Below are positions 2,885 to 6,957 of a stretch of 10,183 bases of DNA, piece by piece (within the stretch, counting starts at the first letter, position 1; every line of letters begins with the position of its first letter). Position numbers and translations under genes: made by a program. The notes beneath the pieces are model-generated. The model searched no databases. It saw only the letters and a program-made list of their open reading frames with translations, and was not told the DNA's origin. The DNA lies in assembly GCA_900553055.1 (NCBI GenBank), contig USBV01000045.1, positions 1 to 10,183 on the forward strand, in the 5' to 3' direction. The DNA is from an uncultured Phascolarctobacterium sp. GTDB lineage: Bacteria; Bacillota; Negativicutes; Acidaminococcales; Acidaminococcaceae.

Positions 2885-4192
2885 ATGAATCATGATAAAT
2901 CCACTGCCGCTTTTGAGGAAGCACGCAAGTACATTCCTGGTGGCGTTAACAGCCCTGTGCGCTCCTTCCGTAGCGTGGGTGGCGTGCCGCCCTTCATTGT
3001 CGGTGGCAAGGGCAGCAAAATCTATGATATTGATGGCAATGAATACATCGACTATGTTTTGAGCTATGGCCCGCTGCTGATGGGCCATGTTCCCGATTGC
3101 GTAACCGAAGCTATCAAGGCTGCAGCCGAAAAGGGCACCTCCTATGGTGCGCCTACCTTGGCTGAAACTGAGCTGGCTAAATTAGTGTGCCGCCTGGTTC
3201 CTTCCATGGACCAGGTGCGTATGGTTAACAGCGGCACTGAAGCTACCATGAGTGCTTTGCGCCTGGCTCGCGCTTACACCGGTCGTGACTGCATCGTGAA
3301 GTTCGTAGGCTGTTATCATGGCCACCATGACAGTCTGCTGGTAAAGGCTGGCAGTGGTGCTACCACCTTTGGCGTGCCTGATAGCCCGGGTGTGCCCAAG
3401 GCAGTTGCTTCCACCACCATCACTGTGCCCTTCAACGATTTGCCCGCACTGGAAAAGGTTTTTGCTGAACGTGGCGAAGAAATCGCCGCTGTTATCATGG
3501 AGCCCACTCCTGGCAATATGGGCCTTGTGCTGCCCAAGAAAGGCTATTTAGAGGGTATTCGCGCGCTGACAAGAAAATACGGTGCATTGGTTATCTGTGA
3601 TGAGGTTATGAGCGGCTTCCGCAGTGCGCAAGGTGGCAGCCAATCCCTCTATGATGTGGACCCTGATATCACCTGCTTGGGCAAGGTTATCGGTGGCGGT
3701 CTGCCGGTGGCAGCTTATGGCGGCAAGCTTGAGATTATGCAAAAGGTTTCTCCTGCCGGCCCCATGTACCAAGCTGGCACCTTGAGCGGCAATCCCTTGG
3801 CCATGGCTGCAGGCATCGCAGCGCTGACCTATATGGAAGAAAACAAGGTTTGCGAAAAGCTGGAAAGCATGACCGCTATTCTAGTTGGTGGCTTGGAGCG
3901 TGCTGCAGCGAAGGCAGGCGTACCCGTGCAGGTGCATCGCCTCGGCAGCATGTTTACCGTTTTCTTTAACGACAAGCCTGTTACCGATTTTGACAGTGCT
4001 GCTGCCAGCGATTTGGAAGCCTTCAAAATCTACTTCCACTCTATGCTGGAGCAGGGCATTTACCTGCCGCCCAGCCAGTTCGAAACTAACTTCTTATCCT
4101 TGGCCCATAGCCCCGAGGATATCCAAAAGACCATTGATGCCGCCGCTGTTGCCTTTGCTAAGGTTGCGGAAGCACGTGGATATAAAGCGTAA
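2885..4192 (+). CDS. hemL: Glutamate-1-semialdehyde 2,1-aminomutase
   Basis: A 435-residue PLP enzyme of the class-III aminotransferase fold. It converts glutamate-1-semialdehyde (made by HemA from glutamyl-tRNA) to 5-aminolevulinate, the substrate of HemB. Landmarks in order: [17 protein letters not shown] (17-33), [17 protein letters not shown] (113-129), GCYHGHHDS (142-150), the PLP-contacting Asp239 in [10 protein letters not shown] (237-246), the PLP-forming Lys267 in [17 protein letters not shown], and [13 protein letters not shown] (298-310). The length is that of the family. AAAGGA at 2871-2876 places the start. Its presence shows the organism uses the C5 (glutamyl-tRNA) route rather than an ALA synthase. 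It is the last gene of the operon; a strong terminator follows 10 bp after the stop. Confidence 0.97.
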
Positions 4193-4202
4193 AATTGTTA
4201 CT

Positions 4203-4241
4203 AAAACTACCCTGTTCACTAAAGGAGCAGGGTAGTTTTTT
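4203..4241 (+). terminator. Rho-independent terminator of the hem operon
   Basis: A perfect 12-bp stem pairs 4203-4214 (AAAACTACCCTG) with 4228-4239 (CAGGGTAGTTTT) around a 13-nt loop. The stem can extend by three further pairs (one G-T), leaving a 7-nt loop. A run of six T follows (4236-4241). It lies just after the hemL stop and separates the operon from the DnaA-box cluster. Confidence 0.92.
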
Positions 4242-4270
4242 GTGCTTTTTCACACAGCAACGCACTAGGT

Positions 4271-4382
4271 TGTGGATAAATAGGCCATTTTATACACAAA
4301 AACACCTACTTATCCACAGTTCCATGGGAAAGTTATCCACAGTGTGCATAAGTAGGTGTATAAGTGAGGCTTTTGTGTATAA
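4271..4382. promoter_or_regulatory. Cluster of seven DnaA boxes (candidate DnaA titration/reactivation site or secondary origin)
   Basis: The consensus DnaA box is TTATNCACA. Exact matches are TTATCCACA at 4310-4318 (+), 4333-4341 (+) and 4271-4279 (-); TTATACACA at 4290-4298 (+) and 4374-4382 (-); and TTATGCACA at 4343-4351 (-). A seventh, TTATACACC at 4355-4363 (-), has one mismatch. That is seven sites in 112 bp, far above chance. The cluster lies in a convergent intergenic gap between two terminators, so neither flanking gene should transcribe through it. No dnaA, dnaN, repA or partition gene is in the window, so the main oriC is not supported. A datA/DARS-like or Bacillus-style DnaA-box cluster, or a cryptic origin, is the inference. 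The box matches themselves are seen directly. Confidence 0.82.
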
Positions 4383-4384
4383 AA
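4288..4384. repeat. Interrupted inverted repeat framing the DnaA boxes
   Basis: The left arm is a continuous 26 bp (4288-4313), made of TTTTATACACAAAA followed by ACACCTACTTAT. Its reverse complement is present on the right in two perfect blocks, ATAAGTAGGTGT (4348-4359) and TTTTGTGTATAAAA (4371-4384), separated by 11 extra bases (4360-4370). The extra bases again begin with ATAAGT, as if part of the arm had been duplicated. The seventh, imperfect DnaA box spans that junction. The central 34 bp hold the box at 4333-4341 and parts of two neighbouring boxes. Confidence 0.8.
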
Positions 4385-4413
4385 AATCCCCGCCCAATTA
4401 AGAGCGGGGATTT
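4381..4413 (-). terminator. Rho-independent terminator of the rubrerythrin gene
   Basis: A perfect 10-bp stem pairs 4384-4393 (AAATCCCCGC) with 4404-4413 (GCGGGGATTT) around a 10-nt loop. On the minus strand it is followed by a T-run formed by the A's at 4381-4386. It lies 18 bp past the rubrerythrin stop. Its T-run overlaps the outermost DnaA box by two bases. Confidence 0.9.
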
Positions 4414-4431
4414 AGTTAAGCCAAGCTTAAA

Positions 4432-4977
4432 TTATTTGCCGAAATATCTCTTCAGCAGGCCAGCAAAAGCTTTGCCATGGCGAGCTTCATCGCGGCCCAT
4501 TTCATGAACGGTGTCATGGATAGCGTCCAGACCCAGAGCCTTAGCGCGTTTAGCCAGATCGTTCTTGCCAGCGGTTGCGCCGTTTTCAGCTTCTACACGC
4601 ATAGCCAGGTTCTTTTCGGTGGAGTCGGTAACAACTTCTCCCAGCAGCTCTGCAAATTTAGCAGCATGCTCTGCTTCTTCATAAGCAGCTTTTTCCCAGT
4701 ACAGGCCGATTTCCGGATAGCCTTCGCGATGAGCAACGCGAGCCATAGCCAGATACATACCAACTTCGGAGCATTCGCCATTGAAGTTAGCGCGCAGGTC
4801 AGCTTTAATATCTTCAGGAACGTCAGAAGCAACGCCTACAACGTGCTCGCAAGCCCAGGTCATTTCACCCTTCATTTCGGTGAATTTGCTAGCGGGAGCC
4901 TTGCATTGGGGGCAAGCAGCCGGAGCAGCTTCGCCTTCATAAACATAACCACAAACTTGACAAACGAATTTTTTCAT
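4432..4977 (-). CDS. Reverse rubrerythrin (N-terminal rubredoxin domain plus diiron ferritin-like domain)
   Basis: A 181-residue cytoplasmic oxidative-stress protein; in anaerobes this family reduces hydrogen peroxide (and in some cases oxygen) with electrons from NAD(P)H via a reductase. The N-terminal 35 residues form a rubredoxin-like Fe(Cys)4 site, with Cys6 and Cys9 in [10 protein letters not shown] and Cys22 and Cys25 in [11 protein letters not shown]. Residues about 55-181 are the ferritin-like diiron bundle, with likely ligands in GECSEVGMY (67-75), EEAEHAAKF (101-109), RVEAENGAT (127-135) and [12 protein letters not shown] (160-171). The rubredoxin part at the N-terminus, rather than the C-terminus, is the 'reverse' order known from clostridia. 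The ATG at 4977 follows GGAGGG with a 7-nt gap; an upstream in-frame TTG lacks a ribosome site. It is monocistronic with its own promoter and terminator. Confidence 0.93.
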
Positions 4978-5056
4978 TATGATTCCCTCCAAATTATATA
5001 ATTTTTATTAATAAGCATCTTCGGTGCCTTAATACAAGCACTACCTTGACACTCAC

Positions 5057-5085
5057 ATCATAGCATATCCTACTAAAATTGTCAA
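5057..5085 (-). promoter_or_regulatory. Sigma-A type promoter of the rubrerythrin gene
   Basis: On the minus strand, a perfect -35 TTGACA (5085-5080), a 17-bp spacer and -10 TATGAT (5062-5057, one mismatch to TATAAT) lie about 80 bp before the rubrerythrin ATG. This near-consensus promoter predicts strong expression. The flanking AT-rich sequence (AATTATTATTGACAATT) could overlap a PerR/Fur-type operator, but no convincing consensus box is seen. Confidence 0.85.
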
Positions 5086-5270
5086 TAATAATTCTTTATT
5101 GCTGAACTTTCTTGAAAAGAGACTGTCGTTTGAACTTGCAGTATTTCCCTTGGAGAAGGTCTCGGTACGAAATGCAGCACTTCAAAACTCTTTCCACAAT
5201 AATTGTAGCATACTGCGAGGATTATGCAAGGAAAAACGAGCAGCTATTTATGACTTTTTTGTTAAACCTC

Positions 5271-5337: not shown

Positions 5338-6957
5338 ATGAGCGCAGAGCAAAAGAATTCTAATACTAATAATAGCAAATTTTTGAAGGGCACGATGATT
5401 TTGACGATCTCCAGTATTATTGTTAAGGTCATCGGTTCCCTAAACTGGATTATTCTTTCCCGCGTGCTGGGCGGCGAGGGCATTGGCCTGTACCAGATGG
5501 GCTTTCCTATTTATTTGATGGCGATTACTGTGTCCTCAGCCGGTGTGCCCGTGGCTATCTCCATCATTACCTCGGAAAAGCTGGCCAATAAGGATTATCG
5601 CGGTGCCAAGCGCGTGTTTAATGTGTCCTTGCGCTTGCTTTTGATTTCGGGCCTGATATTTTCCTCGGCACTTTTCTTTGGCGCGGACTTTTTAATCAAT
5701 CAACACATTATTCGTGACTCCAGAGCCTACTATTCCATTATTGCCTTGGCACCGGCGGTGTTCTTTGTCACCTTTCTAGCCAGCTTCCGCGGCTATTTAC
5801 AGGGTTGGCAGATTATGACGCCCACGGCTACGAGTGAGGTTGTGGAGCAGCTGGTGCGTGTTATCACCATGCTGGTGTTTGCAGATTTGTTCATGCCCTA
5901 TGGCTTGGCTTACGCAGCCGGTGGTGCTAGTATGGGTGCTGGCGCAGGTGCCTTCTGTGCCCTTTTGGTGCTCATGTGGTTCTATCGTCGCCTCAAGCGT
6001 CGCCTGCATGCGGAAATTGAGGCTCAGGATGACAGCATTCCCACGGAAAGCGCGGGACATATCATTAAGCGTTTGCTGAAGCTGGCCTTGCCGGTTTCCT
6101 TAACGAGCTTGATGCTGCCCATCGGTGCCAACCTTGACCTTTTGATTGTGCCCCAGCGCCTGGAGGCTGCTGGCTTTGATGTGCGCCATGCTACGGAGCT
6201 TTTTGGTTATCTAACGGGCATGGCAGTACCCTTGGTAAACCTGGCTACAATTTTTACGGCAGCTATGACTATTAGCCTGGTGCCTTCCATCTCCGAATCC
6301 AGAGCCTTGGAGCGCTTTGATGCCATTCGCGATAAAATTCGTCTGGCTTTTCGCGTAGCGATGATTATTACCTTTCCCTGCTTTATGGGTCTGTTTTTCT
6401 TGGCCGAAAAGGTGGCAGCACTGATTTATAACGCTCCGGGAGCAGCAGGTGCTATCCAAACCATGAGCGTGGGCATCCTCTTTTTAGGGATGCACCAAAT
6501 CAGCACCGGTATTTTGCAGGGCTTGGGCAAAACGGCTATACCCGTTATCAATATGATTTTGGCCTGCATTGTGAAGGTCGTTATGAGCTGGTGGCTCACG
6601 GCTATTCCCTTCTTAGGCATTAAGGGTGCATCCATGGCGACAGTGGCCGATTTTGCTGTGGCTGCGATTATCAATATGGGCTTCATCTATAAATATACTG
6701 GCTTTACCTTCTCTTTGGGCAGCTTGCTAAAACCGTTATTAGCTTCGGGTGTGATGGGCGCAGTTATTTATGCTGTGCTAAGCCTTACCGAGCAGCTGGG
6801 CATGTGGTGCGTGCTTTTTGCCATGGTGGCAGCTGTTCCCGCCTATGCTTTGGCCTTGATTGCCTTTGGCGGCCTGAACAAAGAGGATTTGGATAATGTG
6901 CCCTTTATTGGCAGAAGAATTCTCGCTGTGGGCCAACGCTTCGGCTTTTTTAAATAA
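5338..6957 (+). CDS. MurJ/SpoVB-family (MOP superfamily) lipid-linked oligosaccharide flippase
   Basis: A 539-residue polytopic inner-membrane protein of the MVF/SpoVB/YtgP branch of the MOP exporters, whose members flip lipid II (YtgP/MurJ) or act in spore cortex formation (SpoVB). The hydrophobic profile fits about 14 membrane helices, with no signal peptide needed. Diagnostic stretches are FLKGTMILTISSIIVKVIGS (15-34), LGGEGIGLYQMGFPIYLMA (44-62), SSAGVPVAIS (66-75), and RGYLQGWQIMTPTATSEVVE (151-170), which closely follows the family pattern RGYxQGxxxMxPTAxSxxxEQxxRV. The length matches YtgP (about 540) and SpoVB (about 520). The start at 5338 has AAGGCGG five bases upstream. It is monocistronic between its own promoter and a bidirectional terminator. 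Sequence alone does not separate a housekeeping MurJ from SpoVB or a polysaccharide flippase, so no symbol is given. Confidence 0.88.
   Translation: MSAEQKNSNTNNSKFLKGTMILTISSIIVKVIGSLNWIILSRVLGGEGIGLYQMGFPIYLMAITVSSAGVPVAISIITSEKLANKDYRGAKRVFNVSLRLLLISGLIFSSALFFGADFLINQHIIRDSRAYYSIIALAPAVFFVTFLASFRGYLQGWQIMTPTATSEVVEQLVRVITMLVFADLFMPYGLAYAAGGASMGAGAGAFCALLVLMWFYRRLKRRLHAEIEAQDDSIPTESAGHIIKRLLKLALPVSLTSLMLPIGANLDLLIVPQRLEAAGFDVRHATELFGYLTGMAVPLVNLATIFTAAMTISLVPSISESRALERFDAIRDKIRLAFRVAMIITFPCFMGLFFLAEKVAALIYNAPGAAGAIQTMSVGILFLGMHQISTGILQGLGKTAIPVINMILACIVKVVMSWWLTAIPFLGIKGASMATVADFAVAAIINMGFIYKYTGFTFSLGSLLKPLLASGVMGAVIYAVLSLTEQLGMWCVLFAMVAAVPAYALALIAFGGLNKEDLDNVPFIGRRILAVGQRFGFFK

What the first reader, a model, noticed from the sequence alone, without database searches (positions are those of the whole stretch)
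4271..4382. Dense DnaA-box cluster far from any replication gene
Six exact TTATNCACA sites plus one near match occur in 112 bp of a convergent intergenic gap between hemL and rubrerythrin. A single exact 9-mer of this type is expected only rarely by chance, so the density implies selection for DnaA binding. No dnaA, dnaN or plasmid rep gene is nearby. Established parallels are E. coli datA and DARS sites and the DnaA-box clusters of Bacillus subtilis that control initiation or gene expression. Which of these roles applies here is inference.
Basis: partly seen in the sequence, partly recalled or inferred. Interest (0 to 1): 0.8.

Follow-up and report, generated by a model that had tools for sequence, protein, structure and literature searches.

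The report
Conserved DnaA-box cluster beside hemL
A gut bacterium carries, beside a heme-synthesis gene, a short non-coding stretch packed with likely binding sites for the protein that starts chromosome copying, and the layout of those sites is kept in sister species while the letters between them change.

Summary
In detail: six exact TTATNCACA sites and one near match lie in 4271-4382; none of 1000 shuffles had more than two in 112 bp. The window is Phascolarctobacterium (Negativicutes). The boxes lie between two terminators. In two sister species (82-90% DNA identity) the same gap keeps six boxes, five exact, at identical spacing: 47 of 48 fixed box positions are invariant, against 20 of 39 spacer positions. 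Two more distant species keep the core triad after hemL beside a different neighbour; another keeps three boxes, same spacing, in an unrelated gap. It is not oriC: in three relatives GC skew switches beside dnaA, 65 kb from the cluster in one. Best reading: a DnaA-binding control site that takes up DnaA soon after initiation, like B. subtilis DnaA-box clusters. DARS geometry was tested: same topology, wrong spacing (1 bp between facing boxes, not 5). A second cluster, in the uxaE-rarD gap of relatives, does have DARS core spacing; that pattern is in 30 of 59 family genomes (24 after removing six mis-spaced), a 4-bp control in 4 of 59. DnaA binding and function are inferred.

The parts
4203..4239 (+). 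intrinsic terminator of hemL (15-bp stem, T-rich tail), left border of the element
4271..4279 (-). DnaA box F, TTATCCACA, exact; exact in G048 and G001
4290..4298 (+). DnaA box E, TTATACACA, exact; exact (N base varies) in G048 and G001
4310..4318 (+). DnaA box D, TTATCCACA, exact; exact in G048 and G001; same distance from C in G002
4333..4341 (+). DnaA box C, TTATCCACA, exact; faces box B with 1 bp between; core triad
4343..4351 (-). DnaA box B, TTATGCACA, exact; core triad
4355..4363 (-). DnaA box A, TTATACACC, 1 mismatch (1 in G048, 2 in G001); tandem with B at 3 bp; core triad
4374..4382 (-). sixth exact DnaA box, TTATACACA; not seen in G048 or G001; overlaps the T tract of the rubrerythrin terminator
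4333..4363 (-). core triad A-3bp-B-1bp-C; in 4 of 59 family genomes at 2 mismatches or fewer, all four after hemL
4288..4384. perfect 14-bp dyad (4288-4301 / 4371-4384) with boxes inside; the right arm is not seen in G048 or G001
4384..4413 (-). rubrerythrin terminator-like hairpin (10 of 10 pairs, 10-nt loop), right border
   Evidence: not listed by the scan, whose loop limit is 8
2885..4192 (+). hemL, glutamate-1-semialdehyde aminomutase
   Evidence: TIGR00713 above cut-off
4432..4992 (-). rubrerythrin-family gene, convergent with hemL
   Evidence: PF02915 and PF21349 above cut-off

Best explanation
The cluster is a chromosomal DnaA-binding control site, not an origin and not a promoter element. 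DnaA would bind the tandem pair A-B (3 bp apart) and the facing box C (1 bp from B), with boxes D, E and F adding protomers at fixed intervals, to form one defined DnaA complex in a pocket between two terminators. In the one relative where it can be measured the site lies about 65 kb from oriC, so it would be duplicated soon after initiation, take DnaA out of the free pool and help to prevent early re-initiation, as proposed for DnaA-box clusters of B. subtilis. Shown: the boxes, their conservation and spacing, the flanking terminators, the origin elsewhere in relatives. Inferred: that DnaA binds, that titration is the effect, and that the window's own copy is origin-proximal.
For: Density far above chance. 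Box spacing 10/23/20/19 (starts of B-C-D-E-F) is identical in window, G048 and G001, with 47 of 48 fixed box positions invariant against 20 of 39 spacer positions, Fisher p 1.4e-7, between species at 82-90% nucleotide identity in the matched blocks. Core triad at 2 mismatches or fewer in 4 of 59 family genomes (G001, G048, G003, G059), all four downstream of hemL; reversed control 0 of 59. In G003 and G059 the next gene is tRNA-Lys; in G002 boxes B, C, D keep spacing 10/23 in a gap between a type I asparaginase and a substrate-binding-protein-like gene: neighbours change, the site persists. Two terminators flank it. In G001, G002 and G003 the skew switches beside dnaA; TACTACTAC stands in the dnaA-dnaN spacers of G048, G001 and G003 and not in the window gap. 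G003 distance 64.9 kb. In G001 and G048 it is the largest group of exact boxes within 200 bp among the 100 sites listed, of 131 and 116. DnaA residues for box recognition (E. coli Arg399 and 434-436) are conserved (roles from PMC5742627 passage). B. subtilis: deleting six clusters outside oriC gave early initiation (passages of PMC5295017 and PMC13220808).
Against: No binding data. Origin proximity is measured in G003 only; no genome is held for the window, and in G001, G002, G048 and G059 dnaA is on another contig. The B. [quoted passage not shown] In G002 a local skew change (+ to -) lies about 1 kb from the relocated element, unexplained. Only 7 of 59 family genomes have the 1-bp facing pair by the pattern used, one of them (G004) in the uxaE-rarD gap, so the site is not needed family-wide. 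In L004-L009 the hemL gap has no exact box. Genome completeness was not told, so absences are weak.
Confidence: 0.55

Rival explanations
1. Nucleotide-state site: like E. coli DARS or datA, the cluster makes DnaA exchange ADP for ATP, or hydrolyse ATP, rather than merely holding it.
For: Triad topology (two tandem boxes 3 bp apart, the third facing them) is that of the DARS core. The E. coli residues Asp269, Arg281, Arg285, Leu290 and Arg334, named for DARS or datA in PMC5742627 passages, are conserved. A second cluster in relatives has exact DARS spacing, so the genus may use such sites.
Against: Facing gap 1 bp here, 5 bp in DARS1 and DARS2. Essential datA boxes share one direction (PMC5742627 passage); here both directions occur. 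IHF and Fis were not searched for. The residues named may be conserved in DnaA proteins at large (recalled).
Confidence: 0.2
2. DnaA-controlled transcription of a neighbouring gene or a small RNA.
For: DnaA is a transcription factor elsewhere (PMC4447404 abstract start). One weak promoter-like match, 9 of 12, lies on the minus strand at 4316-4287.
Against: Both flanking genes end here, each with a terminator between it and the boxes. Neighbours differ in G003, G059 and G002. No Rfam family at gathering score. Promoter-like matches in 4150-5100: 3 found, shuffles 1.5 +/- 1.3.
Confidence: 0.1
3. A replication origin, main or auxiliary.
For: Box density; AT 62% in the gap between the terminators against 51% for the window.
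Against: Skew does not change sign at the cluster in G001 or G003 and changes beside dnaA in G001, G002 and G003. The TACTACTAC repeat of three dnaA-dnaN spacers is absent from the window gap. The window's own genome is not held.
Confidence: 0.03
4. Chance or repeat-derived accumulation without function, or a site for another protein.
For: The boxes are partly arranged as inverted repeats.
Against: Chance excluded by shuffles; box letters constrained while spacers drift; exact TTATNCACA sites also stand at the dnaA-dnaN spacers of G001, G048 and G003.
Confidence: 0.07

Closest known systems
B. subtilis DnaA-box clusters outside oriC (Okumura et al. 2012; original not held, seen through passages of PMC5295017 and PMC13220808)
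   Same: Several DnaA boxes in a Bacillota chromosome outside oriC; origin-proximal in the one relative measured.
   Different: Other lineage and locus; fixed six-box geometry kept between species; effect on initiation untested. I did not compare the B. subtilis sequences themselves.
E. coli DARS1 / DARS2 core
   Same: Three-box topology: tandem pair with 3 bp between, third box facing them.
   Different: 1 bp instead of 5 bp between the facing boxes; extra boxes D, E, F; exact DARS spacing stands instead in the uxaE-rarD cluster of relatives.
E. coli datA
   Same: Non-coding multi-box DnaA site outside oriC.
   Different: Mixed box directions here; box intervals differ; IHF site not searched for.
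E. coli double DnaA boxes (PMC11317965)
   Same: Tandem boxes A-B 3 bp apart; E. coli DnaA prefers pairs 2 or 3 bp apart (passages).
   Different: Here joined to a facing box and three more, in a terminator-flanked convergent gap.

Membership tests
DnaA-box cluster outside oriC (B. subtilis kind) | several consensus DnaA boxes clustered outside oriC | tested here: met
   skew switch elsewhere in three relatives
DnaA-box cluster outside oriC (B. subtilis kind) | near the origin | tested here: inconclusive
   65 kb in G003; not measurable for the window or for G001, G002, G048, G059
DnaA-box cluster outside oriC (B. subtilis kind) | removal (with other clusters) gives early initiation | not testable with these tools
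   needs a mutant
DARS | three boxes, box I facing II and III | tested here: met
   A, B, C; definition from PMC5742627 passage; DARS measured from MG1655
DARS | core start-to-start spacing I-II 14, II-III 12 | tested here: not met
   10 and 12 here against 14 and 12 in DARS1 and DARS2
DARS | promotes ADP release from DnaA | not testable with these tools
   needs purified DnaA
datA | essential boxes in one direction | tested here: not met
   three plus and three minus exact boxes; datA feature from PMC5742627 passage
datA | IHF site between boxes | not tested
   no IHF search made
oriC | GC-skew sign change from - to + at the site | tested here: not met
   absent at the cluster in G001 and G003; beside dnaA in G001, G002, G003; the window's own genome is not held
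oriC | TACTAC (DnaA-trio-like) repeat beside boxes | tested here: not met
   absent in 4193-4431, present in three dnaA-dnaN spacers; that such repeats are DnaA-trios is recalled

The most novel reading that the evidence does not exclude
Acidaminococcaceae run a DARS/datA-like cycle of DnaA activation through dedicated non-coding chromosomal sites: an activating site with exact DARS geometry (uxaE-rarD gap in Phascolarctobacterium-like genomes, after gyrA or in another gap in other family genomes) and an opposing site, the hemL cluster, with its own compressed geometry. DnaA nucleotide-state control by DNA sites would then exist in Bacillota, arisen independently or ancient.
Probability: 0.18. 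Interest if true: 0.78.

Novelty: new variant of a known kind. Interest (0 to 1): 0.5.

Why it matters
DnaA-titrating and DnaA-reactivating sites are worked out in E. coli and, for titration, proposed in B. subtilis. The passages seen here place the DARS2 core in gamma-proteobacteria and say that B. subtilis regulators act on DnaA oligomerisation, not on its nucleotide (PMC4245941, PMC5295017). Fixed-geometry DnaA-box sites in Negativicutes, one kind with exact DARS spacing, make it directly testable, with short defined fragments, whether initiator control by chromosomal sites is wider than thought. Searches for Phascolarctobacterium with DnaA, Negativicutes with DnaA box, and DARS1 with Bacillota gave 10, 2 and 1 papers; no title or abstract start in those listings describes such sites (listings only, open-licence library only).

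Tried and rejected
oriC: rejected by skew in relatives and by the missing TACTAC repeat. DARS membership of the hemL cluster: spacing not met. Plasmid context: the hemL-rubrerythrin stretch had no match in near mode among 72,556 plasmid records. RNA element: no Rfam match at gathering score; the strong single-strand DNA fold of 4265-4420 (z -7.9) comes from facing boxes and the rubrerythrin terminator. PMC8682772: the term search returned nothing. Okumura 2012: not held.

Spacing control for the DARS pattern: the same triad with a 4-bp facing gap gave 4 of 59 genomes, at 2-3 mismatches, against 30 of 59 for 5 bp at up to 3 mismatches. Results against the DARS reading: six of the 30 genomes (G010, G011, G018, G019, G056, G057) match only at 3 mismatches, and their matched strings show a 3-bp facing gap (five identical strings, one variant); I looked at the genes of one of them only (L165, noc-like and parA-like by eye). 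One of three G036 matches lies just past dnaA. A 5-bp facing pair with one imperfect box also stands in the dnaA-dnaN spacer of G001, G048 and G003. Exact triads with 2- or 3-bp gaps occur elsewhere in other family genomes (listing cut). G004 is probably a mixed bin (two full-score dnaA matches). In G004 another cluster (9 exact boxes in 345 bp) holds more boxes than the hemL clusters. An earlier count said more than the calls bear out: only L143 and L144 (gyrA) and L165 were examined for gene context, not every genome named there.

Full report
Observation. The window has 7 exact sites; 1000 dinucleotide shuffles averaged 0.34, and none had more than 2 in any 112 bp. The gap is convergent. hemL ends at 4192 with an intrinsic terminator at 4203-4239; the rubrerythrin-family gene ends at 4432 with a terminator-like hairpin at 4384-4413 (the scan lists only the first, its loop limit being 8). 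The boxes therefore sit in a pocket that neither flanking transcript should cross (inference).

Organism. HemL of the window is 97% identical to that of a Phascolarctobacterium genome (L001, here G001) and 98.9% to G048. Nucleotide identity to both is only 82-90% in the matched blocks, so these are sister species and not copies of one strain. No genome is held for the window itself. Completeness of the other genomes was not told, so absences below are weak.

Conservation. In G001 and G048 the same gap holds boxes A to F at identical positions. Over 93 aligned bases, 47 of 48 fixed box positions are invariant in all three, 4 of 6 of the free N positions, and 20 of 39 spacer positions (Fisher p 1.4e-7). 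Boxes B-F are exact in all three; A has 1, 1 and 2 mismatches in window, G048 and G001; the window's sixth exact box (4374) is not seen in the other two. G003 and G059 (HemL 89% identical) keep the triad A-3bp-B-1bp-C after hemL, with a tRNA-Lys next. In G002 the hemL gap has no exact box, but B-C-D with spacing 10/23 stands between a type I asparaginase and a substrate-binding-protein-like gene. G036 has a related pair at the end of a CNNM/CorC-like gene, all family scores below cut-off. Across 59 family genomes the 1-bp facing pair, by the pattern used, is in 7 (reversed control 0); one of these, in G004, lies in the uxaE-rarD gap. The full triad is in 4 at 2 mismatches or fewer, all after hemL, and in 3 more (G030, G036, G055) at 3 mismatches; reversed control 0 of 59. 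L004-L009 have no exact box in this gap. The site is thus selected, but in a subclade.

Not the origin. In G001, G002 and G003 cumulative GC skew has its minimum beside dnaA (15,499, 23,880 and 15,387 of their contigs; dnaA matches from 16,604, 25,191 and 16,447; in G001 and G003 the minimum falls inside dnaN), while the contigs carrying the hemL cluster in G001 and G003 show no sign change there. The dnaA-dnaN spacers of G001, G048 and G003 hold boxes and, by eye, an AT-rich stretch, and the TACTACTAC repeat. The window gap has no such repeat. In G003 the cluster is 64.9 kb from those spacer boxes, 3.4% of about 1.9 Mb. G001's cluster contig holds blocks whose counterparts in G003 lie at about 70-105 and 170-178 kb along the origin contig (frames of 200 residues or more, identity over 60%), which suggests, but does not show, origin proximity there too. 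One result stays unexplained: in G002 a local skew change from + to - lies about 1 kb from the relocated element.

Mechanism. A and B are tandem with 3 bp between them; E. coli DnaA prefers pairs 2 or 3 bp apart in ChIP-seq (PMC11317965, passages). C faces B across 1 bp. D and E repeat the direction of C; F is opposite. DnaA of G001, G003 and G048 keeps E. coli Arg399 and 434-436 and the protomer-contact residues Asp269, Arg281, Arg285, Leu290 and Arg334 (numbers shifted by one because my E. coli fragment lacked its first residue; roles from PMC5742627 passages). The simplest reading is a defined DnaA complex that removes DnaA from the free pool when the region is duplicated. In B. subtilis removing six DnaA-box clusters gave early initiation, but the effect was strong only for all six, one cluster at various locations partly relieved it, and one review holds that the clusters have no significant role (passages). 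In E. coli boxes are enriched near oriC and titration is argued from single-molecule tracking (PMC12371093, abstract and one section). Binding and titration here are inferred.

Relation to DARS. From MG1655 I measured the DARS core as facing boxes with starts 14 apart, then 12: DARS1 at 2108, 2122, 2134 of L121; DARS2 at 2466 and 2478 of L120 from the scan, with the degenerate box I read by eye at 2452. That DARS1 lies between bioD and uvrB, and datA between glyY and queG, is recalled; DARS2 upstream of mutH is in PMC11317965. The hemL triad is 10 and 12: the topology, not the spacing. Listing boxes led to a second cluster in G048 and G004, between rarD and a uxaE homologue (PF16257; rarD TIGR00688), with exactly 14 and 12. 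A census with up to 3 of 24 mismatches found that spacing at 35 places in 30 of 59 family genomes, reversed control 0 of 59. Of the 30 loci fetched, 14 lie in the uxaE-rarD gap. Six genomes have matched strings whose facing gap is really 3 bp, leaving 24 of 59. The same triad with a 4-bp gap was in 4 of 59. At 2 mismatches or fewer, class-wide, it is in 27 of 380 genomes, 19 of them in this family, reversed control 1 of 380. In the 14 gap loci, counting triads with at most 1 mismatch per box, the 3/5-bp triad occurs 12 times and a second one (2 bp, then 3 bp), not selected by the search, 13 times; 11 dnaA loci gave a single triad, of other spacing. This is spacing evidence only; facing pairs with 5 bp also occur in the origin spacer with one imperfect box.

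Verdict. A real, selected, ectopic DnaA-box cluster with a geometry of its own: a new variant of a known kind. The bolder reading, a DARS-like cycle in Bacillota, is not excluded and is cheap to test.

Noticed in passing
G048:C131 3861-4008 (L126, L164); G004:C81 (L081, L158); G001:C18 (L162) and 11 more loci: Second DnaA-box cluster between rarD and a uxaE homologue with exact E. coli DARS core spacing, plus a second recurrent triad (2 bp, 3 bp).
   Followed up: partly
L143, L144 (G020, G021); L145, L148, L150: Other family genomes have DARS-spaced or near-DARS triads downstream of gyrA (L143 by Pfam, L144 by eye), or beside a phosphoribosyltransferase-like gene (by eye).
   Followed up: partly
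L165 (G010): DnaA-box triad with a 3-bp facing gap between noc-like and parA-like genes (names by eye); five more genomes have the same or nearly the same string.
   Followed up: no
G002:C2 168-180 kb (L115, L116): Local GC-skew change from + to - about 1 kb from the relocated cluster; cause unknown.
   Followed up: no
G048:C3 1914-3242: dnaA match with an internal TAA in this genome bin; assembly error or real break not decided.
   Followed up: no
window 5338-6957: SpoVB-like flippase gene, under the NCBIfam cut-off (343 of 372 bits), in a genus not known to sporulate (recalled).
   Followed up: no
genomes G001-G004 and G048: TTATNCACA exceeds its reversed control genome-wide: G001 131 against 28, G002 107 against 25, G003 104 against 51, G004 103 against 69, G048 116 against 30.
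   Followed up: no
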